Part shown: positions 10,326 through 42,968 of the stretch, piece by piece
Layout of the letters: every line of letters begins with the position of its first letter
Numbering within the stretch: position 1 is the first letter of the stretch
From: Enterococcus mundtii
Lineage (GTDB): Bacteria; Bacillota; Bacilli; Lactobacillales; Enterococcaceae
Assembly (NCBI RefSeq): GCF_013394305.1
Contig: NZ_AP019810.1
Location: 992,001-1,056,000 of the forward strand
Direction of reading: 5' to 3'
DNA: 64,000 bases
Notes under the pieces: model-generated
What the model was told of the DNA's origin: nothing
Database searches by the model: none
The model's input: only the letters and a program-made list of their open reading frames with translations
Translations under genes and position numbers: made by a program

Positions 10326-10388
10326 AACTAAATAAACTTAAAGATAATCGATTTTAATACAAATAAAACCGATCTTCAGTCGATTTTT

Positions 10389-10507
10389 CTTCTCCCATCC
10401 AGACTTTAACTGTCGGTGCCAGATTTTCACTAGCTCAACCACAAAAATGTGGTTCACGGACTTCGAGTAAACTCGTCACCGTCGGTCGGGAATTACACCC
10501 TGCCCCG
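10389..10507 (-). promoter_or_regulatory. FMN riboswitch (RFN element)
   Basis: The minus strand shows the conserved RFN blocks in order: GGGGCAGGGTGTAATTCC, GACCGACGGTGACGAG, AGTCCGTGA, GGTTGAGCTAGTGAAA, CTGGCACCGACAGTTAAAG and TCTGGATGGGAGAAG. These cover all six helices of the aptamer. It sits between a strong promoter (10530-10558) and an intrinsic terminator ahead of ribD. FMN binding is known to favour termination in this class, so the rib operon is expected to be off when flavin is plentiful. Confidence 0.96.
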
Positions 10508-10529
10508 AAGAAATATTCAATTCGTTTAG

Positions 10530-30693: not shown

Positions 30694-31710
30694 TTATTCC
30701 ATTGACTCTCCTAATCGAGCCAACCGTTCTTCCCAAAGCATTAGATTTTCAGACATATCGGCTGACGCCTCATAGAACGTAATGAAATCTAAAATAATCG
30801 TTCCTTGCTCTATGTATGCCGCCATCACCGCTTTTAATTCTTCCGTTTGGATTTGTTCAAATGCTTCTTTCGCTTTGTTCATTTCTTTTTCTTTCAACCA
30901 ATCAAGACTTTTTTCAAAATAAAACTGATCCAGTGCTAACGTGATCTCCTGATGTTTCAAGTGGCGATTCAACACAACGGCTTCTTGTACTTGTTCCAGC
31001 TCCAAATAAGCAATCGCTAACTTGGTTTGGCGCTTTTCCGTCAATTGTTCCACGTGGGTCGCAATCACTTTTTTCCAATCGTTTTGATAAAAAGCCAGAT
31101 CAAAGGTGGCATTTCCTGTTGGCTTTTGCTCATTCAACTTCTCTACCCAAGAAAATTCCTGTTCTTCCACTAAGTGATCGATCAATTGCTGATACTGAGT
31201 GGGATATTCTTCCGCAGCTTCTTCATATGCGCCTGCTTCTACTAATGACTGCCATGAACTTTTCTGATTTTCTTCGGTTGTCGCTTGCTCATTATTCGTT
31301 CTTTGTTCAACAAACAAACCGACACCTTGAATCACAACAAAAACGATTACTCCACTAAGAAGTAATCGCTTGATGATTTTTTTCCAATTGATTTGTAACA
31401 ACTGATTTTTTTTCAGTGTGTTGCTTGAATGAGAGAACTGACTCTTCTCTTTTGTATTGGCTATTTCTTGCTCCCAGTGTTGACTTAAGATCTCTTCAAT
31501 CTCCTCTGTCAAAGGAAATTGAAGCACTTTTTCTATCATCATTTCTCCCTTACGATCATAAATACGTATGCGACATTGTCCTTGTGTGTTTGCCAGCAAG
31601 ACTCGTCGATTTTCAGTTTCTAAATCTTCCAAAGCCTGAAACAAATCCAACTGAGTCTCTTCTACTTGTAAGTGATGGATCTGATCGATGATTACAGTTT
31701 CTTTCGCCAT
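30694..31710 (-). CDS. bitopic membrane protein of T4SS cassette, unknown function
   Basis: 338 residues. A cytoplasmic N-terminal part of about 110 residues (beta-rich start, DLFQALEDLETENRRVLLANTQGQCRIRIYDRKG) is followed by one membrane helix at about 112-133 (IKRLLLSGVIVFVVIQGVGLFV) and about 200 extracellular residues of short amphipathic helices, TPR-like in appearance. The topology recalls EssB/YukC of type VII systems, but I cannot claim homology. Last gene of the secretion cassette, 60 bases after the VirB8-like gene, same strand. Probably a structural or assembly component. Confidence 0.55.
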   Translation of the reverse strand: MAKETVIIDQIHHLQVEETQLDLFQALEDLETENRRVLLANTQGQCRIRIYDRKGEMMIEKVLQFPLTEEIEEILSQHWEQEIANTKEKSQFSHSSNTLKKNQLLQINWKKIIKRLLLSGVIVFVVIQGVGLFVEQRTNNEQATTEENQKSSWQSLVEAGAYEEAAEEYPTQYQQLIDHLVEEQEFSWVEKLNEQKPTGNATFDLAFYQNDWKKVIATHVEQLTEKRQTKLAIAYLELEQVQEAVVLNRHLKHQEITLALDQFYFEKSLDWLKEKEMNKAKEAFEQIQTEELKAVMAAYIEQGTIILDFITFYEASADMSENLMLWEERLARLGESME

Positions 31711-31770
31711 ACGTTGTCACTCCCCTCATTCATTTTTGTTGCGTCCATTTGTAAGGTCTTCCTTACTCAA

Positions 31771-32298
31771 TCATTGTATTTCCATAAAAGAAGACAGCTG
31801 TTCGAGATCATCCAAGACATAGCGATGATTTTTAGTGTCATAGAGATAAGTCAGTTTGACACCCTCACGATGGCGAATATCTTTTTTTACAACTCCGCCT
31901 TCTTCATTCAATAAAGACGTCGTAAAATCAACCAAACAGAGGACTTCAACCATTTCCTCGTTCGTTTGTTTAAAATAATGCTCGCTTTTGAGCCAGCGAC
32001 TGAAGCCAAAACGCTGTGGACTATGCGTTTTTTTACCTTGTTCTGTTTTTACTTTATCTTTCATCTTGTTAGAAAGAGCATCAACATATGCAGAGTAATT
32101 GTCGCCGACTGTTTCAAACGTATAATAAGCTTGTAAAAATTCTCTGACTTGTGCTTCCGAAAGTTGTCTGGATTTTTTTTCAGAGGCTTGTCTTTTTTCT
32201 TGTGAACGAAAGACAAGTGACCTACCAACACTAAAAGTCATGCTACCAAACAGAAAGAAAGCTAGAATGAGACAAAGGAAGCGGGATTTTGCATTCAT
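31771..32298 (-). CDS. VirB8/TcpC-like single-span protein (tentative)
   Basis: 175 residues: a short cytoplasmic start, one membrane helix or uncleaved signal (FLCLILAFFLFGSMTFSVGRSLVF), then an extracellular domain starting LSEAQVREFLQAYYTFETVGDNYSAYVDALS, which has the look of the NTF2-like domain of VirB8/TcpC/PrgL proteins, and a beta-rich end. Its ATG overlaps the stop of the murein hydrolase gene by 4 bases. Position after VirB4- and VirB1-type genes is also where Tn916 carries its TcpC gene (orf13, after orf14). Homology is inferred from length, topology and context, not from a motif. Confidence 0.5.
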   Translation of the reverse strand: MNAKSRFLCLILAFFLFGSMTFSVGRSLVFRSQEKRQASEKKSRQLSEAQVREFLQAYYTFETVGDNYSAYVDALSNKMKDKVKTEQGKKTHSPQRFGFSRWLKSEHYFKQTNEEMVEVLCLVDFTTSLLNEEGGVVKKDIRHREGVKLTYLYDTKNHRYVLDDLEQLSSFMEIQ

Positions 32299-34220
32299 TT
32301 TTTTTCTCCCAACAATCGATAGAAATAAACAGGCGCCAGCTGGAAATCACCTGCATAGCCTTCAAATGGAGTGATGACGATATCGCCTTCTTGACCATAC
32401 CCTCGTGCAGTAGCAGGTGTGCAATGAAGGATCGTTTTACCACCATCATCTAAAAATAGCCCTGTATGGCCGTAACTACCTAAAGAGTGTCCTTTCTTCC
32501 CCCACACAAACAAGTCACCGGCTCTGACATCTTCTCGACTGATTGGCATCAGGAAAGTCCCTTCCAAAGAATACAATGTCTCAGTGCTACCTAGTGGCAC
32601 AGGCAAGCCAACACTTCTCATCGCCCACAGAACAAAAGAAGAGCAATCATGATAAGGAAAGGTGCCTCGTTCAAAGCCTTGTGAGTACTGAACGTTTTGA
32701 CGATACAATGTTCTGGCTTGTGTCAACACCTCTTGACCCACTGTGTGATTCGATTGCCAGAGTAAGCTCATCTCTTTACTGCCACCTAGTTGTACAAATA
32801 ATTCTTTGATCGTCGGTACCCAGTATTGGTTTAATCCCAGGGGATCATTACTTGCACCTACAGGACAATACACACTTCCGAGTTGCTCGACTGTCATCAG
32901 TCTTTGGTTCACGATCAATTGGTTTAGTGTTCGAGCGGTGGCGGCAATCCCTTCTTCAAGTGTGGCGTAGGAAAGCAACTCATTTTCTCGCATCAAGCCA
33001 CCTGGATTGTTCTTTTCTCGAATTCCTTCGCTCGTCCCCCAAGCAGTTTCGTGGATCATGATGGCTGCTAGAACAATGGGGGAGATATTATTCTTTTTAG
33101 CTTCTTGGATAATCGTTTCTGCATGGTCACTAAATGCGTGACAATGCAGTAAAATCACTTCTCGAAATTTCTGTCCATTAAATGTAACGTCCGTTTCAAT
33201 GGGATCAAGCTGTGTCTCATTGTTATCGACTACATTGGGGAGATAAAAAGCTGGATTGACGATTTCACCTTTTTTCTGGTAAGACAGATGCAGTTCCTCT
33301 TGTTTTACTTTCCCGATCTCTGTCCCCACCGATACCATCTGTCCTTCAGTAGCTGTTAGATCTACATCATGATAAGTAATGGTTTGATCGTTCATTGTGA
33401 TGGTTACGTTCTCTCGGTCTCTTGTAATTTCTCCAGCGATCACAGCGACTATGCTTTCTTTCGGTTCTGTCTGGATGAGCAGTCCTTCAAGTAAGCTTTT
33501 TTCTTGATTTGTTACGTAATAACCAAAGCGTTGTTTTATGCGTAAAGAGTCTGTTTCTTTCAATGGATTGCTTAATTCAGTCAAACTTGCATAAAGACCA
33601 ATTTCTGCTAACAGCTGTCTGCGTTCTTTCCACTCCGGCGTCCAAGTGATCACTTGCGACAATGATCGTGATGTTAATTTGATTTGACCTTCGTTACTGT
33701 CTACTTGCCACATCTGTTCATGCAATCCTTGGATCGTTTCTTTGAGAACATCTGGATTTCCTAATTGGTCTTCACCATAAGCCATGTCTAAATAAATCAG
33801 CACCTCTTCAATATCAGACCTGATCACGACTTCATTTGCAGCCACTACTCGTTCATTTACTAGAATCAAACTCTTAGTTGAGTTTAATTCTAGTGTCAAT
33901 TCCACATCCAATTCGGTTAAATATTTCCATACCTTCGTCAATTCAAGCTCATTGATTTTGATCGTGGCAGACGAAACGAAGCCGATCATACTGAAAAAGA
34001 GAAAAAATATGAGAATGCTAACACCAACAAGTAGGTAAAGGCTGACTTTGCTACTGATCGAAGTTTTATTTCCAAGTAAAGAGAAATCAACTATTTTTGT
34101 CTGATATGCAAGCATGACTCTGCGAGGATCTTTCGTTTTCCTACGCAGAAAATGTCTGTTACTCCTTCGTTTATTTCGTGATTTCACGGTCTCTTCAATG
34201 CCTACATCGTTTTTTTTCAT
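32295..34220 (-). CDS. multidomain peptidoglycan hydrolase of the T4SS (VirB1/CwlT-like)
   Basis: 641 residues. A basic cytoplasmic tail and one membrane helix (about 58-83) precede three wall-related modules. At about 230-330 there is what looks like a dead M23/LytM barrel (QRFGYYV, VAVIAGEIT, YHDVDLTATEGQMVSVGTEIG, then ELHLSY where HLHF would carry ligands, and GEIVNPAFYLP). At about 365-475 a glucosaminidase-type domain follows (LAAIMIHETAWGTSEGIREKNNP). At about 510-635 there is NlpC/P60 with Cys in HDCSSFVLWAM and His in GSYGHTGLFLDD. It should open the wall for the secretion channel. Start overlaps the VirB4 stop (ATGA). Confidence 0.8.
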   Translation of the reverse strand: MKKNDVGIEETVKSRNKRRSNRHFLRRKTKDPRRVMLAYQTKIVDFSLLGNKTSISSKVSLYLLVGVSILIFFLFFSMIGFVSSATIKINELELTKVWKYLTELDVELTLELNSTKSLILVNERVVAANEVVIRSDIEEVLIYLDMAYGEDQLGNPDVLKETIQGLHEQMWQVDSNEGQIKLTSRSLSQVITWTPEWKERRQLLAEIGLYASLTELSNPLKETDSLRIKQRFGYYVTNQEKSLLEGLLIQTEPKESIVAVIAGEITRDRENVTITMNDQTITYHDVDLTATEGQMVSVGTEIGKVKQEELHLSYQKKGEIVNPAFYLPNVVDNNETQLDPIETDVTFNGQKFREVILLHCHAFSDHAETIIQEAKKNNISPIVLAAIMIHETAWGTSEGIREKNNPGGLMRENELLSYATLEEGIAATARTLNQLIVNQRLMTVEQLGSVYCPVGASNDPLGLNQYWVPTIKELFVQLGGSKEMSLLWQSNHTVGQEVLTQARTLYRQNVQYSQGFERGTFPYHDCSSFVLWAMRSVGLPVPLGSTETLYSLEGTFLMPISREDVRAGDLFVWGKKGHSLGSYGHTGLFLDDGGKTILHCTPATARGYGQEGDIVITPFEGYAGDFQLAPVYFYRLLGEKK

Positions 34221-36667
34221 GGCGATACATCCTGTCGTAATCTGTGGCGTTCGACAGGATCAGTGGTGATCAACTCATAAAGTTTTGTTGTTGGATCAAC
34301 AGTGTTGGAAAAAGGGACAATGGCATTGCCTGCCCGTATCAATCCTGCGCCTTTGATTGGATTGAGTAATTGTCTTTGTTGCTGATACGAAAGATTGAAT
34401 AAGGAAGACAGCTCATCTAAATCACTTTTCGCTTGTTTCAACATAATGATAAATTCCGTATTACTTAACATTCGGCGTGCTTTATCTGATAATAATAAGG
34501 TTTCGACATTTTGGGTAATACCAGTGGCAATCGCACCCCATTTACGGATTCGGCTCCATAGTTCAAAAAAATAATTTTCACAGTAAGGATCATTTAACAG
34601 GAGTTGCATTTCATCAATATAGATCCAAGTAGTGATGCCTCTGTCTCGATTGCGAACGACCCGATTCCACACTTGTTCCAAAACAACCATCATCCCAAAA
34701 GTTTTCAATTGATTCCCTAGTTGTTTCGTATTGTAAATCACAAAACGTTTATTTAAAGAAACATTAGTTGGTTTAGAAAACATCGAAAGTGAACCATCGA
34801 TATATAACTCTAAGTCTAACGCCAATGTCTGCGCCTCTTTTTCCGGTTGTTCTTTTAAAAGCGGAAACCAATCTTCCGCCAATGTCGGCGCTGATTTTTC
34901 TGAGATTTTTTGAAAATTGAAATACGTCAATCGCGTGACACGATCAATGATCGATCGTTGTGCCGAATTTAACCCAGTTGGCCCACCGATCAAGGCTTCA
35001 CAAGCAGTTAACAGAAAGTCAGATTTCAATTTTACTGGATCTGCCTCTCCTCTCAAGTCTTCTGAAATATCTAGTAAGTTGATGAAGGTATTGGTATTAG
35101 GGGCGATATTGATGATTTGAGCATCAAAATCATTGCCGATGATCGTATCTTCATCTTCCGGATCAATCGAAATGACTTCATCTTCGGGATTTTTAAGTAA
35201 CGTCGTGATTTCTTCATATTTTTTGGCTACACCTTTGCCTGAACCAGAGCTACCTAAAATCATGCCACTCGGCGTGTTTAGTTGCTTACGATTGATCCTT
35301 ACACTATTTTTGGTCATTTCATTTTTCCCGTAATATTTGCCATCTATATGATTAAGATCTTGCGCTGAAAATGGAATAAAAATCGCTGTACTTTCTGTCG
35401 TCAACGTCCGTTGTTGTTCGATCCAATTTTTTCCTAAAGGTAAGACCGAATTGAATCCTTCATCTTGTAGATAGTCTAATGCATTGAAATGACAACGATT
35501 TTTACGCCCAACATGTTGGACTTGTTCCGCAATATCAGCAAGTTTTTCTTTGGTCTGAGATCGGAAATAAACGAGGAAGGTAACAAAATATAATTTTTGA
35601 CCGGTTTTGACTAGATCGTCTAATAAAGCTTCGGCTTCTTTGATACTATTGGTCAATTCATACGGAATATTTGAATAAGGATCATAGCCTTTTTGTGTCG
35701 CTTTTCTTTCAGCAGTTATTTTGTCCCCTTCCATATAAGCTTTTTTAATTTGAACCAACTGATTTGCTTTTTCAGAATCCACTGGTTCAATGTGGATCGA
35801 TAAACACAACTCTTCGCCAATATCCATTAATTCTAAGATCAATCTATCTGAAAGTTTGGTGGGGTAATCTTTCAAATATAGGACTTGGGCATACTCTGAG
35901 CCAATTTCGATATAGTCTTTTGCTTTAAAGCTGAAACTTGCAGGGGTAACAACTGCTTTTGTCGACAAACGGCTATAAACTAAATCTGTATAATTGAACT
36001 GGAACCATTCATTAGGTTTGATCAATTCATGGAGCAGTTGCAACCGTTCTTTGCCAGAAAGTGTTTGACTACTTGATTCGATTTCCGAAAGACTATGACT
36101 AAGTTGTTGTTCGATACGTGTCAAGGAATGCTTGGCTTGGTCATAATCAGTAGACTGCGTGCTGAAGGTCAATAGATTTTGTTTGCTAAAATTCGTTCCT
36201 CCTTCTGTCATGGTTCGCCGCAGCATTTCATTCAATTCTCGACGGTAGATGTCCTGACTCTCCCCTGTTTCTTTATAGAACAATTGCTTTTCCAGTTCCT
36301 TTTGTTCCATTCGCTTTTTTTTCAAGGTAATCGTTAGATGCGTTCGTTCATCACAACTATCTAGTAAGGTACAATACCCTTGAAAAATAGCTTGTTGGTC
36401 TTCTACAGGTGCAATTTGGTAATTGACATCTGAAAACTGGATACTTTTTGAATAATATCCGGAAGCAAGTTCACAAATTCCACTTTCGTACATTTTTTCA
36501 TAACGAATCTTCCTTTGTGCATGTTTGGCTGGTGCTGATTTTCGTTCTTTTTTTCCTCTTTTTTTCTTTTGCTTGTGTAATAGTTTGGTTAAGGAAGACT
36601 TTTTAATTCCCTTGTTCACTTCGATATTTCTCTGTTTTACTGTTTTTCCTCGTTGAAATCCCTTCAT
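34217..36667 (-). CDS. VirB4-like conjugation/secretion ATPase
   Basis: Energises assembly and transport in Gram-positive type IV secretion. 816 residues: an N-terminal basic region, a VirB4 N-terminal domain, then the RecA-like ATPase with Walker A GSSGSGKG at about 470 and Walker B WIYIDEMQLLL at about 680; GITQNVETLLLSDKARRML is the conserved downstream helicase-like segment. Start at 36667 follows GGAGG with 6-base spacing; the gene begins 65 bases inside the PrgI-like gene. No coupling protein of TcpA/VirD4 type accompanies it, so this is the only ATPase of the cassette. Confidence 0.88.
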   Translation of the reverse strand: MKGFQRGKTVKQRNIEVNKGIKKSSLTKLLHKQKKKRGKKERKSAPAKHAQRKIRYEKMYESGICELASGYYSKSIQFSDVNYQIAPVEDQQAIFQGYCTLLDSCDERTHLTITLKKKRMEQKELEKQLFYKETGESQDIYRRELNEMLRRTMTEGGTNFSKQNLLTFSTQSTDYDQAKHSLTRIEQQLSHSLSEIESSSQTLSGKERLQLLHELIKPNEWFQFNYTDLVYSRLSTKAVVTPASFSFKAKDYIEIGSEYAQVLYLKDYPTKLSDRLILELMDIGEELCLSIHIEPVDSEKANQLVQIKKAYMEGDKITAERKATQKGYDPYSNIPYELTNSIKEAEALLDDLVKTGQKLYFVTFLVYFRSQTKEKLADIAEQVQHVGRKNRCHFNALDYLQDEGFNSVLPLGKNWIEQQRTLTTESTAIFIPFSAQDLNHIDGKYYGKNEMTKNSVRINRKQLNTPSGMILGSSGSGKGVAKKYEEITTLLKNPEDEVISIDPEDEDTIIGNDFDAQIINIAPNTNTFINLLDISEDLRGEADPVKLKSDFLLTACEALIGGPTGLNSAQRSIIDRVTRLTYFNFQKISEKSAPTLAEDWFPLLKEQPEKEAQTLALDLELYIDGSLSMFSKPTNVSLNKRFVIYNTKQLGNQLKTFGMMVVLEQVWNRVVRNRDRGITTWIYIDEMQLLLNDPYCENYFFELWSRIRKWGAIATGITQNVETLLLSDKARRMLSNTEFIIMLKQAKSDLDELSSLFNLSYQQQRQLLNPIKGAGLIRAGNAIVPFSNTVDPTTKLYELITTDPVERHRLRQDVSP

Positions 36668-36986
36668 GATCTTCCTCCAAACGAGCATTTTGATATGGAT
36701 AGTGCTTTGTTGCGATAAGATGGCGCCAACGGATAAGGAGATATTTTTCTAAAGGTAACTGATTTTTTTTGATCCAACCCACCGATAAAATCGGACTAGT
36801 AAAAAACATCAATACAATTCCTAGATCATCAATTGAATAGCCCCAAATAAAATGATTAAGTAGGCCGACCGGTAAAATCACGATTAAAGCCAATGCAATA
36901 ACGATAACCTGTCTTAAAGAGAAGCCAAAAAAGATCTTCTCTTGATACTCTTTGATTTCTTTTCTGATCACGACTTCAATCGCCAT
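36603..36986 (-). CDS. PrgI/VirB3-like membrane protein
   Basis: 127 residues of the PrgI family, the Gram-positive counterpart of VirB3. Two close membrane helices (about 24-45 and 50-67: VIVIALALIVILPVGLLNHFIW, then DLGIVLMFFTSPILSVGWI) follow the characteristic start EVVIRKEIKEYQEKIFFGFSLRQ, and the C-terminal part is basic and cytoplasmic (YLLIRWRHLIATKHYPY). Its 3' end overlaps the VirB4 gene by 65 bases in another frame. VirB3 and VirB4 work together and are sometimes fused, so tight overlap is meaningful. Confidence 0.82.
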   Translation of the reverse strand: MAIEVVIRKEIKEYQEKIFFGFSLRQVIVIALALIVILPVGLLNHFIWGYSIDDLGIVLMFFTSPILSVGWIKKNQLPLEKYLLIRWRHLIATKHYPYQNARLEEDHEGISTRKNSKTEKYRSEQGN

Positions 36987-37007
36987 TTTTCACACTCCTT
37001 TTCCCAC

Positions 37008-37841
37008 TCAGGCCGCAACGATGATCGCTTTCGACCATTTCATGGTGTAAAACAAACACATGGATAGCGCCAAGCAATTACCGACGATCGCACTGATCAC
37101 TGCAATCATCCCCTGCGTCTCATCAAATGAAAAAATAGTACTCACTAGTAGTGGATAGATATTCAACACGATAAAAAGCAATACACCTTGTAAAGATGCC
37201 GCACCAAATAGTTTTAAAAAATTCTTTCCGACATGCCCGATTTCTGTATTCACTAAAGCGACAATCGGTAAAGGTGAGATACTCAAATAAAGATACATTT
37301 CCAAAAAGCGTAAAAAGATCAGCACTTGAGCAAGGACGCTAACAATGATCGATAGAATCAAGGGAACGAGTAAGATCATCAACAACACCATTTTTTCAAA
37401 AAAACCTAGCTGATCGATCTGCTCCATCACGTTGAAGATATCCATTGTCTGATCCGTCACACCTCGAATCTCCAATTGATTGATTCCTTGACTAACAAAA
37501 ATACCTACATCCATAATGGCATTGAGGAAAACCATCAAGTGGCGTAAAAGCAGTACGGTCAATCCGATTTTGATAAACAATGGCAAAAAAAGATCCAGTC
37601 CACCAAACTCTGACTGCTTGCCATATAGTCGATGTGCGAGTTGTTGAAATTCGATCAACAATAGAAAACCTAATAGGGAATAAGCAATAGGTTTGACGAC
37701 ACTTTCCATGATCGTCACACTGTAACGATAGATTTCCGGCAGATAATGTTCGAGGTTTTGTAAAAGACTATTTTTATGATTCGTCGATAAACTTAATTGT
37801 TCTGCAATCGTTTGTAGCAAAAATTCGATCGCACCGTCCAT
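37008..37841 (-). CDS. VirB6/TrbL-like polytopic membrane protein of T4SS
   Basis: 277 residues with about six to seven membrane helices and an extracellular N-terminal amphipathic part (MDGAIEFLLQTIAEQLSLST). Segments such as VLLLRHLMVFLNAIMDVGIFVSQGI and ISPLPIVALVNTEIGHVGKNFLKLFGAASLQGVLLF resemble the VirB6/TrbL family (CD1107-type in clostridial conjugative transposons). It would form the membrane channel. Start at 37841 is set by GAGGAG 9 bases upstream. 13 bases after the VirB2-like gene. Confidence 0.72.
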   Translation of the reverse strand: MDGAIEFLLQTIAEQLSLSTNHKNSLLQNLEHYLPEIYRYSVTIMESVVKPIAYSLLGFLLLIEFQQLAHRLYGKQSEFGGLDLFLPLFIKIGLTVLLLRHLMVFLNAIMDVGIFVSQGINQLEIRGVTDQTMDIFNVMEQIDQLGFFEKMVLLMILLVPLILSIIVSVLAQVLIFLRFLEMYLYLSISPLPIVALVNTEIGHVGKNFLKLFGAASLQGVLLFIVLNIYPLLVSTIFSFDETQGMIAVISAIVGNCLALSMCLFYTMKWSKAIIVAA

Positions 37842-37854
37842 TCTTTTTCGCTCC

Positions 37855-38058
37855 TCACATTGAAATATTCGTGATCCACGCACCAGCAGCTAAAATCACT
37901 GCACCCCCAACGATTTGAAAAATGGCATGTTGCATCCCTGGCCCATTATGCTCTTTGATTGCAACGCCTAATTGGATAATGCCCCAAACGGTCAGTAAGC
38001 TTCCTGCAGTAATCACCCCGTTGGAAAATAAAGACATTGCTTGATTGAAATAATCCAT
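37855..38058 (-). CDS. VirB2/Maff2-like small membrane protein (pilin-like)
   Basis: 67 residues, mostly two hydrophobic helices (SNGVITAGSLLTVWGIIQLG and AIFQIVGGAVILAAGAWI) separated by a short polar loop HNGPGMQHA. Size, topology and the GG motif fit the Maff2/TrbC-VirB2-type subunits found immediately before VirB6-type genes in Gram-positive conjugative elements. Strong AAGGAG-type site. It may build an extracellular or intramembrane conduit; no signal peptidase site is obvious. Confidence 0.68.
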   Translation of the reverse strand: MDYFNQAMSLFSNGVITAGSLLTVWGIIQLGVAIKEHNGPGMQHAIFQIVGGAVILAAGAWITNISM

Positions 38059-38068
38059 TTATTTCTCC

Positions 38069-39709
38069 TTATTCGCTCAATTTCTCTGGCATTTCTGGAT
38101 TGTTGTCTTGAATAATGACATGAAAAGATACTGTCGTTTCTGTAAATGTATCTTTGACCGTCAAATAAACAGGATAGCTTCCAGGTGTATCCCAAGCGAT
38201 TTCTTCTATGATCTCAACATCTTCTATTCCAATACTCTCTTCACGATCCGAAACGGAGATCCCTGCTAATAAATCTGGCTTTTCTTCGCCTACAATGATT
38301 CTCTTATCCTCTATCCCAGAAAATACAGGTGGTTCATTGATTACTTGGATGCTCCCAAAGGTTTTGGTGATCTCTCCATGTGTATCTTGGACTTGAAGAG
38401 GAAAACGATAGGTATTTAATCGGGAAGTGTCGATTTTCTCCCAAAAAGGCAGAGCGATTGCCACATGTAATTGCTCAACCGGATCTTCACGATCTGCAAG
38501 AACTAGTTTTGCTAGATAGCTTTCTTTATTCAGTTCACTGAATACAGGAAGAGTCATATGCGTATTTGTAATCGTCGGCGCTTCATTTGTTAAGTGAACA
38601 CGGATCGTACGCTCTGCCGCTCTTTTGCCATACCGATCAACGACATTTCCAATTCTTACGAAGTAGTTTCCTGGTACATATGGGACAAGATCGGATGCCA
38701 AGATATTGTCTGAAGTAAGGTTGATCGCACCATCTTCTTGATCATTTGCGGAGAAATAATCAAATAAAGAGAATGATTGATCAACAGGTAAAACGAGCTG
38801 GTTCGGCCCCGCGATTATTGGTGCTTCATTGGTGATCCTCATATTACTTATCAGCTTGGTACTTGCTCCAAATTGATCAGTCACAGAATAAATCACTTCA
38901 TAACTGCCTTCTTGTTCTGTTTGGAGTGTGGTTTGTACTTGAACTTCTGAGGTCAATTCACCATCTTCTTCATCATGAGCAGAAATGCCCGCTAATAAGT
39001 CAATACTTGAACCAATCGTGATGTGGTGACTTTGTCTTACTTGCTGAATGATCGGAGAGTGATTAAACAGAAAGGTGACTGTCGCAACACTCACTTTCCC
39101 TTTTGAATCAATTGCTGTGATCTGCATCACTTGGTAGCCAGATTCATTAGGATCGACGGGCGTATAATGGATCACTGGAACGGGATCACTTCCTTGAACA
39201 ACAGTAAAATAGGTAAAGGGATCAATTGCTGTTCCTCTTGGTAAGATCTGCAATGGAGCATTTGCATGGACGTAAGGACCTTGCCAATGATTATCGCTCT
39301 CTGGAATTGCTGAAATATTGGATAGAGTACCTTTTTGTTCGTTTTCTTCGAAGCGATTTGTGAGATTGCTTCTTGATTCTGTATTTTCCCGATTTTGAGA
39401 GACTGTTGTGGCTTCAAGGTAAGCGATTCTCAGCTGATTGGTTTCATCCTTGATCATTGCTTCCGTGGGAAGATCCAGTGGTTTTCTAAATTGAGAAGCA
39501 AACTCAAACAAATGAGAAGAATTGTTTTCTTTTTTGAAATAGCTCTCCTCTGGTGTCTCCACGCTGATTGCCTGTTTCATTTTGCTTGAAGTAGGGCCAG
39601 CTGTTGATGGATCTTCTGTTTGTTGTGTTTTACAGCCGCTGACGAACAAAACAACTGAACAACTGAATATGAACAAGCCAAATCTCATGTATTTTTTCCT
39701 TTTAGTCAT
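38069..39709 (-). CDS. surface lipoprotein with repeated Ig-like (DUF5011-type) domains
   Basis: 546 residues: signal peptide with lipobox VSGC (Cys about 26), a Ser/Thr/Glu-rich spacer, then four or more repeats of about 80-90 residues, each starting near 'I..G....LLAGISAHDEEDG' and ending in 'YEVIYSVTDQFGASTK'-like strands. These are immunoglobulin-like modules of the kind found in Gram-positive surface proteins. It overlaps the adhesin gene by 8 bases. Anchored on the outer membrane face, it may scaffold the secretion channel through the wall, or bind a partner surface. Both roles are inference. Confidence 0.7.
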   Translation of the reverse strand: MTKRKKYMRFGLFIFSCSVVLFVSGCKTQQTEDPSTAGPTSSKMKQAISVETPEESYFKKENNSSHLFEFASQFRKPLDLPTEAMIKDETNQLRIAYLEATTVSQNRENTESRSNLTNRFEENEQKGTLSNISAIPESDNHWQGPYVHANAPLQILPRGTAIDPFTYFTVVQGSDPVPVIHYTPVDPNESGYQVMQITAIDSKGKVSVATVTFLFNHSPIIQQVRQSHHITIGSSIDLLAGISAHDEEDGELTSEVQVQTTLQTEQEGSYEVIYSVTDQFGASTKLISNMRITNEAPIIAGPNQLVLPVDQSFSLFDYFSANDQEDGAINLTSDNILASDLVPYVPGNYFVRIGNVVDRYGKRAAERTIRVHLTNEAPTITNTHMTLPVFSELNKESYLAKLVLADREDPVEQLHVAIALPFWEKIDTSRLNTYRFPLQVQDTHGEITKTFGSIQVINEPPVFSGIEDKRIIVGEEKPDLLAGISVSDREESIGIEDVEIIEEIAWDTPGSYPVYLTVKDTFTETTVSFHVIIQDNNPEMPEKLSE

Positions 39710-42700
39710 TCAAACCACCCTTTTTTTGTTGATAGATCAAAAGACCACTCACTCCTAGAAATAAAATACCTAGCCCTACTAGAGAAACAGAAGTACGACT
39801 ATTTGTTTTAGGTAAATCACGAGTATTTTCCTGCTTTTTCGTTTCTTCTTTTTCCCCTTCTTTTGGTGTATTGAAATGAACAGTCTGTTCTTGATTCGTC
39901 AAATCATCTTCACGTGCTACCTCATTTTCTTGCTCAGACTCGTAGTATAAAATGTGAGTGGCAGTCAACTGCTCCTTGTCTTTTAGCGTATTGGCTTTCA
40001 GCTCAAGAAAAACTTCAAATTGATCTTCTTTACTCTTTGCTGTGTAGGTTGAGATTGCTTCGTTGATGAGTTCTCCGGTGTCACCTTTTCGGTACTGGGT
40101 CACTACGGTATACACATGACCGACTTCAATGGCTGCTCCTTTGATCCAGACTACGTCTTTCAATTGATTGTCTTTGGTTGGATCAAGCTCCTTACTTCCG
40201 TCGATTGCTGTGAACAAACTCGTCAATGCTAATTTTTCGCGTTCGTTATAGGCTTCTAATACGATCAACTCACCATCTTTTTCAATAGTTACTGAAAAAT
40301 CTAAAGGTTCTTCTAAAGGTAAATACCCTTCCAATGGTTTTCCTTCAATAAATTGATAGGTCCCATAGGGCAAATCGCTTACTTCGATTTTTCCCTCATC
40401 ATCCGTGAGATATTCTTCAATAAATTGAAGGATATCCCCGCCATTTTCTGCTTTTTCTACCTGATATAAACCAAATGGTACTTGCACCAAAGGTTGTTCA
40501 TTCAAGCGATCTCGTTTGATCAATTCAATGGATTGTCTTGCTAAACGGTTAGGGACTTCTAAGCGAATCAATGCACTATGATTTTCTGCTGTTACACTGA
40601 AAATCAATGGTTCTTCTAACGGGAGATAGCCTTCTGGCGCTTTGACTTCATGAAGCTCATAGCGATCCACGCCCCAAGGTAAGCTCTCTGTTGTCACTAA
40701 TTCCCCTTTTTGATTCGTTTCAAAAATCTCAGTTTTTTCTGTATCATTCGGACGTGTCATTGCTACAAATGCCCCTTGTCCATCATTCGCCCAAGTATCA
40801 AAAATCTTGAATTGTGCGCCAGCATAGGGAATTTGTTGTCCTGTTTCTTGATCGATCTTGATGAGATGTACGCGTGATTCGATGATTTCATCTTCTAATA
40901 AAAAGAAATGTGTGTAGCCTTCCTCACTGATCGTCACTTCAAATGGTTCAATGATCAAATAGCCATCCGTTCCTTTAGTTTCAGCGATCGTATACGTGTC
41001 ATAGGGTAAATCGATAAATTTAAAGTAGCCGTTTTTTTCAGTGACTTGGACATATTCTTTTCCTGTGGTATGAGCGGTGGCTGTTAGTTCGATTCCTTCG
41101 AGTGGTGGTTTATGATTCGTTTGATTGGATGTTAATGCGTGTAAAATTTCGAAGATAGAAGTGGGGATAAGAGGTTTTGAACCAAATTTATATCCTTCGA
41201 CATGTCCCTTGATGACGCGATCAGTGACTGTTTTGCTATGAACAGCCACCGTTTCATTTTGTCCTGCGTAAGTCAAATGTATAGGATAGATGGTCGGATC
41301 TAAGTTATATCCTTTCGGTGGAATGGTCTCTTGTAAATAATAGGTTCCTAGTTTTAACCCTTTTAGCTCAGCTGATGCACTTCCATTAACCTCTTCCATC
41401 GTCAATTCCGCCACTGTTTCTCCGTCTTTGTCCGTTAATTTATAGACAGCTCCGATCAATTGGGCACCTCCTTGAGGCTGATTGCCTGTTTCTGCATCTT
41501 CTTTGATGACCTTCAAATTAGCTGTCTGTTCTTGATTAGCTAATGTGATACTCGTCAATTCATTCACTTTGACAGTGACAGTCTGGGGCGTTGGATTTAA
41601 AACGTAGCCTTCTGGCGCTTTGATTTCTTGAATCGTAACGACCGTATCAACGAGTAGATCATGCCAAATAGCAACACCATCAGAATCTGTCGTCAATTCT
41701 TTTATCTGTCCATCCGCAGTCGTGAAACAAAAAACGGCGCCTACTAATGGTTGTTTTGTTTGTTGATCGACTTTGCGGATACCTGCATGTCCATATTTTT
41801 GCACGCGTAACTGAAAGGAGGTTCTTGTCAGCTGTGGCACTCTACCGACTACCATGTTTTGTGTATAAGGATGTTGGTACACGACGATTGCTCCTTGATA
41901 ACTACTGGGGATATGATAATCAAATGCGATTTCACTTGTCGCCGGTGCTTCTTTCGATGCAGTGACTGTTACTTGATTACCTTGCTTTTCAATGGTTACT
42001 CCATTGATTTGTTGAACAGGCGATGAGCTATAATTTGAAAATGCTCCTGTTGTGTCGGTCAATATTTGGCTTTCGCCGGCTTTTATATCCAATATTTGTC
42101 CATCAAAACTCGGTTGGGTATAGAACCGTTCCACTTGTTCCATCACTGTTCGTTTGAATGTTTGGTAATCGTTCATTGTCAAAACACCAGTAATACTGGT
42201 GGGGGTGATTCCTTGTTGCTCCCAAGCAAGGAGTTGCGTCATCAATTCTTTTTCCATCGTGTAGTTTGTCGCAATCACCCCATAGTATTTAATCAAAGAA
42301 ATTTTCTTCAATAATTCTGTGTTTTGAATACTTGAAGTATACCCGCTATTTTCTCCAATATTCAGCGCTACTCCTTGTTCCAGACAAAGCGCAATCTCTC
42401 CCTTCACTCGCTTGCCGTACCAACCAATTTCTCTGCCACCATTAGATAGATGGATATCGATATGAGGGATATGGATCGCTGGATCAACAACGACACTTTC
42501 ATTTGCAAATGGATCAGCCAATCTTGGAGAATATTCATGGATCGCCGCTTCAATATAATTCGTCGAACCAATAGTAATCAATTTCCCAGTGGCCCTTTGG
42601 ACTAATTGATAGTTTTTTTTGAAATTTGTCCAGCTATTATCCTGTGGGATTGATTGTTCAGCTGTACGTAAAGTTTGATTGGGATCAGATGCAGTGATTT

Positions 42701-42824
42701 GTTGATACATGGGTAGGTCAGGCAATGTTTCTGCCGAGACTGGTCTCACTTTCATTTGAAAAAAAATAGTGATTAAAATAATGATTGGTAGAATCAAAAA
42801 TAGTGATTCAGAGGATTTCTTCAT
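39702..42824 (-). CDS. LPXTG surface adhesin with thioester and Cna-B/SpaA domains
   Basis: 1040 residues from MKKSSESLF (AAAGGAG upstream). Signal peptide, then a thioester domain: Cys in ALCLEQG (about 147) and the TQ of TQLLAWEQQG (about 197) are the crosslinking pair of the TQXA class. At least four SpaA/Cna-B repeats follow (for example KAPEGYVLNPTPQTV, IPPKGYNLDPT, KAPEGYLPLEEP, KPLEGYLPLEEP). Next comes a terminal VaFE-like domain (SLFTAIDGSKELDP through LTNQEQTVHF) that may carry a Thr-Gln ester bond. The protein ends in LPKTN, a membrane helix and a charged tail for sortase. First gene of the secretion cassette; it could covalently grip a target cell or host surface. Confidence 0.85.
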   Translation of the reverse strand: MKKSSESLFLILPIIILITIFFQMKVRPVSAETLPDLPMYQQITASDPNQTLRTAEQSIPQDNSWTNFKKNYQLVQRATGKLITIGSTNYIEAAIHEYSPRLADPFANESVVVDPAIHIPHIDIHLSNGGREIGWYGKRVKGEIALCLEQGVALNIGENSGYTSSIQNTELLKKISLIKYYGVIATNYTMEKELMTQLLAWEQQGITPTSITGVLTMNDYQTFKRTVMEQVERFYTQPSFDGQILDIKAGESQILTDTTGAFSNYSSSPVQQINGVTIEKQGNQVTVTASKEAPATSEIAFDYHIPSSYQGAIVVYQHPYTQNMVVGRVPQLTRTSFQLRVQKYGHAGIRKVDQQTKQPLVGAVFCFTTADGQIKELTTDSDGVAIWHDLLVDTVVTIQEIKAPEGYVLNPTPQTVTVKVNELTSITLANQEQTANLKVIKEDAETGNQPQGGAQLIGAVYKLTDKDGETVAELTMEEVNGSASAELKGLKLGTYYLQETIPPKGYNLDPTIYPIHLTYAGQNETVAVHSKTVTDRVIKGHVEGYKFGSKPLIPTSIFEILHALTSNQTNHKPPLEGIELTATAHTTGKEYVQVTEKNGYFKFIDLPYDTYTIAETKGTDGYLIIEPFEVTISEEGYTHFFLLEDEIIESRVHLIKIDQETGQQIPYAGAQFKIFDTWANDGQGAFVAMTRPNDTEKTEIFETNQKGELVTTESLPWGVDRYELHEVKAPEGYLPLEEPLIFSVTAENHSALIRLEVPNRLARQSIELIKRDRLNEQPLVQVPFGLYQVEKAENGGDILQFIEEYLTDDEGKIEVSDLPYGTYQFIEGKPLEGYLPLEEPLDFSVTIEKDGELIVLEAYNEREKLALTSLFTAIDGSKELDPTKDNQLKDVVWIKGAAIEVGHVYTVVTQYRKGDTGELINEAISTYTAKSKEDQFEVFLELKANTLKDKEQLTATHILYYESEQENEVAREDDLTNQEQTVHFNTPKEGEKEETKKQENTRDLPKTNSRTSVSLVGLGILFLGVSGLLIYQQKKGGLND

Positions 42825-42935: not shown

Positions 42936-42968
42936 AAAAAAAAACGACCAATCAATTGATTGGTCGTT
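42936..42968 (-). terminator. terminator of the mtlA2-mtlR-mtlF2 operon
   Basis: AACGACCAATCA / TGATTGGTCGTT stem with a minimal loop, followed on the minus strand by nine T. It stands 13 bases after the mtlF2 stop and isolates the mannitol genes from the secretion cassette, which must then have its own promoter in 42858-42935. That gap also holds an AAGGAGG (42885-42891 complement) that has no start codon at a usable distance. Confidence 0.8.

What the first reader, a model, noticed from the sequence alone, without database searches (positions are those of the whole stretch)
30694..42824. A compact nine-gene type IV secretion cassette with no relaxase, coupling protein or integrase, set between two mannitol PTS loci
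All nine genes are on one strand with overlaps or tiny gaps: adhesin, Ig-like lipoprotein, VirB2-, VirB6-, VirB3-, VirB4-, VirB1-, VirB8-like and one unknown bitopic protein. That is a complete wall-crossing channel set. Missing are the parts needed to move its own DNA: relaxase, TcpA/VirD4 ATPase, oriT-like genes, integrase, replication. Neither flank shows direct repeats or a tRNA. It may be a relic, may serve other mobile elements in trans, or may be a dedicated chromosomal machine for protein export, DNA uptake or contact-dependent action. This is my main candidate for an undescribed system.
Basis: partly seen in the sequence, partly recalled or inferred. Interest (0 to 1): 0.82.

Follow-up and report, generated by a model that had tools for sequence, protein, structure and literature searches.

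The report
Inherited conjugation channel without DNA-loading genes
A group of related Enterococcus species carries, at one chromosomal place, the cell-contact and channel half of a plasmid DNA-transfer machine without the genes that load DNA into it; it looks kept for some other job, which has yet to be tested.

Summary
The nine-gene cassette is real and as described. It is the mating-pair-formation half of a Prg/Pcf-like Gram-positive conjugation operon: thioester LPXTG adhesin, Ig-like lipoprotein, VirB2, B6, B3 (PrgI), B4 (CD1110), B1 (PrgK-like), B8 (PrgL-like) and a membrane-TPR protein. Plasmids of Lacticaseibacillus and E. faecium have the same order plus PcfB-VirD4 before VirB2, MobC-relaxase downstream and some small genes. 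It lies in one chromosomal slot in 9 of 16 sampled species of the genus; these form one clade, and the VirB4 tree follows the species tree. VirB4 and VirB6 are under purifying selection (dN/dS 0.04-0.10) and VirB1 and adhesin catalytic residues are kept. Against a smooth story, 9 of 78 gene copies are broken or absent, and 5 of 9 genomes have at least one break. Best reading: a domesticated, contact-dependent envelope machine that needs no VirD4 of its own, comparable in make-up to Bartonella Trw, H. pylori ComB or Bordetella Ptl. Its substrate is unknown. All 9 carriers also hold a second chromosomal T4SS-type VirD4, so loading in trans stays open.

The parts
39702..42824 (-). LPXTG adhesin: N-terminal class II-like thioester domain (C147/Q322), SpaA repeats, T-Q ester domain
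   Evidence: Pfam SpaA and TQ; profile match to solved SaTIE-TED 6fx6, E 9.6e-21; C147 and Q322 kept in 56 of 56 relatives of 990 aa or more
38069..39709 (-). Ig-like lipoprotein (lipobox VSGC read by eye)
   Evidence: Bact_surface_Ig-like, E 1.6e-14; Lacticaseibacillus plasmid proteins, 28% over 55% of the length, E about 6e-10; the villorum orthologue 30% to the plasmid protein at this operon position
37855..38058 (-). VirB2-like small membrane protein
   Evidence: Maff2 weak, below cut-off; cassette VirB2s 44-48% over 46-48 aa to plasmid proteins at the same position
37008..37883 (-). VirB6-like polytopic membrane protein; plasmid homologues align from residue 15, so the true start may be internal
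   Evidence: 32.5% to the protein at the VirB6 position of pEfmO_03, E 8e-52
36603..36986 (-). VirB3-like (PrgI family)
   Evidence: PF12666, E 3.2e-16
34217..36688 (-). VirB4 ATPase, CD1110 family; Walker A GSSGSGKG, Walker B DE
   Evidence: NF045971, 990.6 bits; alignment A2; motif counts
32295..34220 (-). VirB1-like peptidoglycan hydrolase: LytM-like, glucosaminidase-like, amidase/CHAP
   Evidence: Pfam; PrgK 8s0u, E 1.3e-22; E391, C526 and H585 kept in 9 of 9
31771..32298 (-). VirB8-like (PrgL-like)
   Evidence: profile match to PrgL 7aed, E 2.8e-9
30694..31710 (-). bitopic protein: small alpha/beta N-terminal domain, predicted membrane stretch, TPR-like C-terminal helices
38059..38068 (.). 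10-nt junction where cousin plasmids hold PcfB and VirD4
   Evidence: gap size; plasmid gene order; a TnpB gene lies between the same two genes in G007 and G012

Best explanation
The cassette is a domesticated mating-pair-formation module. SHOWN: most of its genes have homologues in the same order in CD1110/PrgI-type plasmid transfer operons, which also carry PcfB-VirD4 and MobC-relaxase; it sits in one chromosomal slot in one clade of species; its VirB4 tree follows the species tree; core genes are under purifying selection. INFERRED: it was gained once in the ancestor of that clade and kept for a function other than moving its own DNA. LIKELY MECHANISM (inferred): the thioester adhesin bonds covalently to a neighbouring surface, the VirB1-like hydrolase opens the wall, VirB8/B6/B3/B2 form the trans-envelope conduit, VirB4 drives assembly or movement, and the lipoprotein and TPR protein brace the contact. 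With no VirD4 of its own, cargo is taken either after Sec export (as for Ptl) or the machine acts mainly as a contact or adhesion organ (as proposed for Trw). No substrate is identified.
For: Collinearity with plasmid operons that carry VirD4 and a relaxase: 7 of 9 cassette genes have a BLAST match in order in each of two plasmids. Cassette next to murT-gatD in 9 of 16 species genomes, and before W46 in the 7 of these whose other side is on the contig; absent from the place in 7 of 16. Carriers are one side of a branch, 92/91, in 88% of bootstrap trees. The cassette VirB4 tree gives the same order. dN/dS against three close genomes: VirB4 0.09-0.10, VirB6 0.04-0.06, all nine genes below 0.5. 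Catalytic residues of the VirB1-like enzyme in 9 of 9, thioester pair in 56 of 56 long relatives. Full-length clusters stand for many sequences: VirB4 P0001 160, P0004 454 and P0009 200 members; adhesin P0159, named E. hirae, 511 members at 1010 aa.
Against: 9 of 78 gene copies seen are broken or absent and 2 more doubtful, while 39 of 39 copies of five flanking genes are open. The VirB8 gene is damaged in G005 and G009, the TPR protein is missing in G009, VirB6 is split in G014 and the VirB1-like gene in G002. Shortened clusters exist too: VirB4 P0024, 490 aa, 40 members; 20 of 76 adhesin clusters examined are under 990 aa. Fast change in the bitopic protein, VirB8, VirB1 and lipoprotein (dN/dS 0.19-0.47). 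The root of the species tree is a midpoint, so a single gain is inferred. Adhesin relatives at about 63% are named E. faecium and E. lactis, contexts unseen. No expression, assembly or phenotype data.
Confidence: 0.57

Rival explanations
1. Slowly decaying relic: an integrated plasmid or ICE lost its relaxase, VirD4 and replicon, and the rest is being eroded at different speeds.
For: 5 of 9 carrier genomes have at least one broken or missing gene; 9 of 78 copies broken or absent against 0 of 39 in five flanking genes. G002 has three broken genes and a changed Walker B residue. A TnpB gene inside the operon in G007 and G012. A shortened VirB4 cluster of 40 members.
Against: dN/dS is 0-0.12 for VirB4, VirB6 and VirB2; most core frames are open across species whose VirB4s differ by about 30%; catalytic residues kept; large clusters with full-length VirB4 and adhesin.
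Confidence: 0.21
2. Channel served in trans: the cassette still moves DNA or protein, loaded by the VirD4 of the second chromosomal T4SS locus (T4a) or by co-resident mobile elements.
For: All 9 carriers have the T4a-type VirD4 and only 1 of 7 non-carriers does (Fisher p 0.0009, not corrected for relatedness). T4a VirD4 of this genome is of the CD1115 family, as is that of pEfmO_03. Guglielmini et al. 2011 (PMC3158045: passages with part of the abstract, and section 11 in full) infer extensive use of T4SS in trans.
Against: T4a has its own VirB4, VirB6 and VirB1-like genes in all 8 genomes where it was read, so it needs no second channel. T4a and cassette VirB4s fall on different sides of the tree. 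Co-occurrence may be shared ancestry only.
Confidence: 0.14
3. DNA-uptake machine, as ComB of Helicobacter pylori.
For: ComB likewise consists of VirB homologues without VirD4 (PMC12857230 section 20, read in full).
Against: No competence gene lies in the cassette; the adhesin and wall hydrolase point to cell contact; com genes elsewhere were not searched for.
Confidence: 0.04

Closest known systems
Prg/Pcf T4SS of pheromone plasmids (pCF10, named from PrgK/PrgL structures and recall) and the CD1110/CD1115-type operons of E. faecium pEfmO_03 and Lacticaseibacillus N1115 plasmid unnamed_3
   Same: PrgK- and PrgL-like subunits, PrgI, CD1110 VirB4, Ig-like protein (Lacticaseibacillus plasmid), SpaA-type adhesin (pEfmO_03), relative of the bitopic protein; same order
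   Different: the cassette has no PcfB, VirD4, MobC, relaxase, replicon or the small ORFs between; chromosomal, one slot, apparently vertical
Bartonella Trw T4SS
   Same: VirB set without VirD4, related to a plasmid system, thought to serve attachment (PMC12857230 section 20)
   Different: Gram-negative, several VirB2/VirB5 genes; here a single VirB2 and an LPXTG thioester adhesin; no experiment here
H. pylori ComB and B. pertussis Ptl
   Same: VirD4-less T4SS
   Different: Gram-negative envelopes and known substrates; none known here
Patescibacteria T4SS
   Same: MPF_FATA-related chromosomal T4SS mostly without relaxase (PMC12102498, passages)
   Different: VirD4 homologues are common in those genomes, near virB4 in a minority; different phylum
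Streptococcus elements with GKG-type VirB4
   Same: sister VirB4 clade, same Walker A GKG
   Different: in the two loci read (L106-L109) a VirD4 homologue lies in the same gene run as VirB4
pLS20 thioester adhesin TIE
   Same: class II thioester adhesin in a conjugation operon (PMC8092201, passages)
   Different: the pLS20 adhesin is reported not to be sortase-anchored; this one has an LPXTG-type signal

Membership tests
Self-transmissible MPF_FATA conjugation system | VirB4 of Gram-positive CD1110 type with VirB1/3/6/8 homologues | tested here: met
   CD1110 VirB4, PrgI, PrgK- and PrgL-like matches; VirB6 by similarity to a plasmid protein
Self-transmissible MPF_FATA conjugation system | coupling protein VirD4/TcpA in the element | tested here: not met
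   no such protein among the nine; the genome's PF02534 hits are at C1:1538476 and C1:3014579, over 0.4 Mb away; FtsK-type hits also elsewhere
Self-transmissible MPF_FATA conjugation system | relaxase in the element | tested here: not met
   no relaxase among the nine ORFs; genome hits lie on C3, C4 and at C1:301667; PF01076 search uninformative
MOBless T4SS (Guglielmini et al. 2011) | VirB4 plus T4SS genes with no nearby relaxase | tested here: met
   definition read in PMC3158045 section 11
VirD4-less T4SS (Ptl, Trw, ComB, Brucella VirB) | VirB set without a VirD4 of its own | tested here: met
VirD4-less T4SS (Ptl, Trw, ComB, Brucella VirB) | works without any VirD4 | not testable with these tools
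   every carrier has a VirD4 elsewhere
Class II thioester-domain adhesin | conserved Cys and Gln in a TED near the N terminus | tested here: met
   profile match to 6fx6; both columns kept in 56 of 56 relatives of 990 aa or more, in 74 and 75 of all 76 examined, the rest gaps
Class II thioester-domain adhesin | thioester bond forms | not testable with these tools
   needs mass spectrometry
EssB/YukC (T7SS) for the bitopic protein | same fold | tested here: inconclusive
   Foldseek lists YukC/EssB chains only at E 0.22-0.43; model pTM 0.48

The most novel reading that the evidence does not exclude
The first VirD4-independent, non-conjugative T4SS in a Gram-positive genus: a contact machine that bonds covalently to a neighbour and passes something other than its own DNA, inherited vertically through a clade of species, alongside a second inherited T4SS locus that has kept VirD4 but shows no relaxase.
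Probability: 0.33. Interest if true: 0.82.

Novelty: new variant of a known kind. Interest (0 to 1): 0.62.

Why it matters
A 2025 review (PMC12857230; section 20 read in full, other parts by passages) names only Gram-negative examples in its section on T4SSs lacking VirD4, and calls it a long-standing question whether Gram-positive T4SSs have become dedicated effector translocators. This cassette, in culturable enterococci, makes that question testable by gene deletion. It also shows which half of a conjugation operon stays when self-transfer is dropped.

Tried and rejected
Walker A as a sign of a dead or new ATPase: all 19 cassette-type VirB4 clusters (P0001-P0019) read GKG in place of GK[ST], but so do Streptococcus relatives, and the two Streptococcus loci read carry VirD4 (35 of 120 listed hits read GKG, 80 GK[ST], 5 neither). 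Rejected as a mark of domestication.

Mannitol link: rejected. Phage origin: no near match in the phage collection; PHROGs, run on 6 of the 9 proteins, matched only the wall hydrolase. Defence system: PADLOC, run on 6 of the 9, gave only a weak ATPase match of VirB4 to mad8, E 1.2e-7. EssB-like nature of the bitopic protein: not established. A strict regular expression for the thioester region missed most adhesins (both patterns in 9 of 56; the Gln pattern aimed at the wrong Gln) and was replaced by alignment columns. The context of the more distant cassette-like VirB4s (P0010-P0019) could not be seen: a family search with P0019 found the nine carriers and three 48% relatives among 106 genomes. 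Promoter scan: 18 hits against 32.4 in shuffles, so nothing can be said; a terminator-like hairpin at 42943-42968 lies before the operon. Literature: the listings (20 of 48 and 20 of 32 papers shown) showed no title on this cassette; only open PubMed Central papers are held.
Full report
WHAT IS THERE. The window lies at 992001-1056000 of contig C1 of a 3.3 Mb, four-contig genome. Its VirB4 is 98% identical to that of E. mundtii Pe161, so the host is E. mundtii or very close. The evidence for each is under parts; the VirB2 and VirB6 names rest mainly on similarity to plasmid proteins at the same operon position. Of the six core subunits that the review lists for the Gram-positive S. suis 89K system (VirB1, 3, 4, 6, 8, VirD4; PMC12857230, passage) the cassette has five; VirD4 is missing.

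WHAT IT IS. Two plasmids show the parent plan. In Lacticaseibacillus N1115 plasmid unnamed_3 (MOB-suite: conjugative, MOBP) the order is Ig-like protein, PcfB, VirD4, VirB2-like, VirB6-like, PrgI, VirB4 (CD1110), CHAP/VirB1-like, a 174-aa protein, a 76-aa protein, a 381-aa relative of the bitopic protein, and further on MobC and relaxase. Seven of nine cassette genes have a BLAST match there; the 174-aa protein stands at the VirB8 place without a match, and of an adhesin only a 170-aa surface-protein piece is annotated upstream. E. faecium pEfmO_03 has SpaA adhesin, sortase, PcfB, VirD4, VirB2, VirB6, PrgI, VirB4, a VirB1-like protein (match to the CHAP part only), a 206-aa protein at the VirB8 place (no match), small ORFs, a 355-aa relative of the bitopic protein, and MobC and relaxase; no Ig-like match, and MOB-suite calls that record non-mobilizable although a relaxase is annotated. 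Several of these matches are strongest to the cassette proteins of other carrier species rather than to the window's own. In the cassette the lipoprotein and VirB2 genes are 10 nt apart: the place of PcfB-VirD4 is closed without a visible scar. Relatives of the bitopic protein occur on 264 plasmid records when searched with its homologue from G089, another genus of the family; the window's own protein finds 190 at E 0.1, one of them over 80% of its length. The G089 locus also has relatives of the VirB8-like, VirB1-like and Ig-like proteins, a VirD4-like protein, and a 575-aa protein whose start resembles the annotated MobP2 relaxase of an E. hirae plasmid (the last is my reading). No plasmid record has a VirB4 of 60% identity or more (815 records matched).

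WHERE IT IS FOUND. Of 16 genus genomes (one per species), 9 carry it beside murT-gatD; in 7 of these the other side is on the contig and leads to W46, while G008 ends after VirB2 and G014 before the adhesin. In the other 7 the place is empty (G001, G011, G013), has one unrelated 161-aa ORF (G003), or holds an ABC-transporter-like gene pair between the two mtl loci (G004, G006, G010). A profile of the VirB1-like protein matched something in 59 of 106 family genomes, but near full length (585 or more of 637 positions) only in those 9. Among 396 order genomes VirB4 at E 1e-225 was found in 8, all of them carriers; G014 is not among the listed rows. A five-gene species tree, with G008 and G014 only about a third filled, puts the carriers on one side of a branch (92/91; 88% of bootstrap trees), and the VirB4 tree repeats its order. 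Vertical inheritance after one gain is the simplest account. Adhesin relatives at about 63% are named E. faecium and E. lactis in the protein search, so strains outside this sample may carry the cassette, or the adhesin alone.

IS IT KEPT? dN/dS against G012, G007 and G008 (NG86): VirB4 0.098, 0.093, 0.091; VirB6 0.043, 0.060, 0.038; VirB3 0.092, 0.087, 0.214; VirB2 0.117, 0, 0.051; VirB1 0.330, 0.225, 0.199; VirB8 0.314, 0.186, 0.473; bitopic 0.329, 0.373, 0.265; lipoprotein 0.370, 0.259 and adhesin 0.206, 0.174 (not on the G008 contig). Flanking murT, gatD, mtlD1 and mtlA1 lie between 0.015 and 0.087; mtlF2 and mtlA2 reach 0.167 and 0.267. So the core is constrained, and the surface parts change fast but stay well below 1. 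Against the reading: of 78 gene copies seen (81 less 3 beyond contig ends) 9 are broken or absent (G009 bitopic and VirB8; G005 VirB8 and adhesin; G002 VirB1, lipoprotein and adhesin; G014 VirB6; G007 adhesin) and 2 doubtful (G014 VirB8 and G005 VirB4, at their N termini); 5 of 9 genomes are affected, while 39 of 39 copies of murT, gatD, W46, W47 and rbsK are open. Some breaks may be errors of draft sequence; the adhesin cluster named E. hirae (511 members, 1010 aa) shows that an intact form is common there. Shortened forms also occur: VirB4 cluster P0024 (490 aa, 40 members) and 20 of 76 adhesin clusters under 990 aa. Parts of the machine are thus dispensable in some lineages: in the E. ratti genome tblastn finds no bitopic protein.

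HOW IT MAY WORK. The adhesin begins with a thioester domain like that of SaTIE. The pLS20 study reports that such a domain is essential for efficient conjugation (PMC8092201, passages). Adhesins of E. mundtii plasmids pP6-3 and pP6-4 are 66% identical over 85% of the E. faecium relative P0154, itself 63% identical to the window's; on pP6-4 the gene lies upstream of TcpE, ATPase and coupling-type genes, though MOB-suite calls both plasmids non-mobilizable. The VirB1-like enzyme keeps its catalytic residues (residue roles are recalled from the families). I therefore infer a contact-triggered envelope machine. What it carries is unknown. Without VirD4 it could take Sec-exported cargo, act as an attachment organ, or borrow a VirD4. 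The last is kept open by a second locus, T4a: a CD1115-family VirD4, with VirB6, PrgI, VirB4 and VirB1-like genes, no relaxase noticed among the ORFs of the 40 kb read in this genome and no PF03432 or PF02486 hit there, an Mga-type regulator. It lies among the same neighbours in the seven other genomes read (G012, G005, G009, G014, G015, G002, G010), though G014 and G002 are cut by contig ends and G009 lacks several genes on one side; a VirB2-like ORF was listed in five of these seven. A VirD4 of this type is in 9 of 9 carriers and 1 of 7 non-carriers.

NOVELTY. The parts are known; MOBless T4SSs have been counted across prokaryotes (PMC3158045); VirD4-less systems are described in Gram-negative bacteria. 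A VirD4-less, relaxase-less cassette of Gram-positive type, inherited by a clade of species, was not seen in my listings. I file it as a new variant of a known kind.

Noticed in passing
G000:C1 about 1529474-1543331 (L036, L037) and L110-L123: Second chromosomal T4SS locus (T4a) with VirD4 but no relaxase or integrase noticed, next to Mga-type regulators, among the same neighbours in the other genomes read; its VirD4 is 80-87% identical to that of six other species genomes while the 936-aa neighbour is only 22-31%. Candidate Gram-positive effector translocator; as interesting as the cassette itself.
   Followed up: partly
G000:C1 about 3012778-3037543 (L038, L039): Third T4SS locus (T4b) with VirD4, VirB6, PrgI, VirB4, a 1113-aa wall-hydrolase-like protein, a 1508-aa protein and MucBP surface proteins; a regulator that looks Mga-like by eye comes first; no relaxase noticed.
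   Followed up: partly
L022:16074-17288 and L024:15832-17046: An IS605-type TnpB gene sits between VirB2 and the lipoprotein gene in G007 and G012, where cousin plasmids hold PcfB-VirD4; a 98-aa ORF at the same place ends the G008 contig.
   Followed up: partly
L046, L047, L048: In G004, G006 and G010 the slot between the two mtl loci holds a gene pair resembling an ABC transporter instead (second gene in two pieces in G006).
   Followed up: no
L106-L109 and the genomes: A VirB4 lineage 69-90% identical to P0060 is in 17 of 396 order genomes (16 of one genus, one of another family) and, in the Streptococcus proteins seen, shares the unusual GKG Walker A; the two loci read have VirD4 and very large genes of over 2000 aa nearby.
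   Followed up: partly
window 10383-10516: FMN riboswitch on the minus strand, upstream of what looks like a riboflavin gene run; ordinary.
   Followed up: no
L034, VirB4 of G002: Walker B reads DK where the other rows of A2 read DE; this genome also has three broken cassette genes.
   Followed up: no
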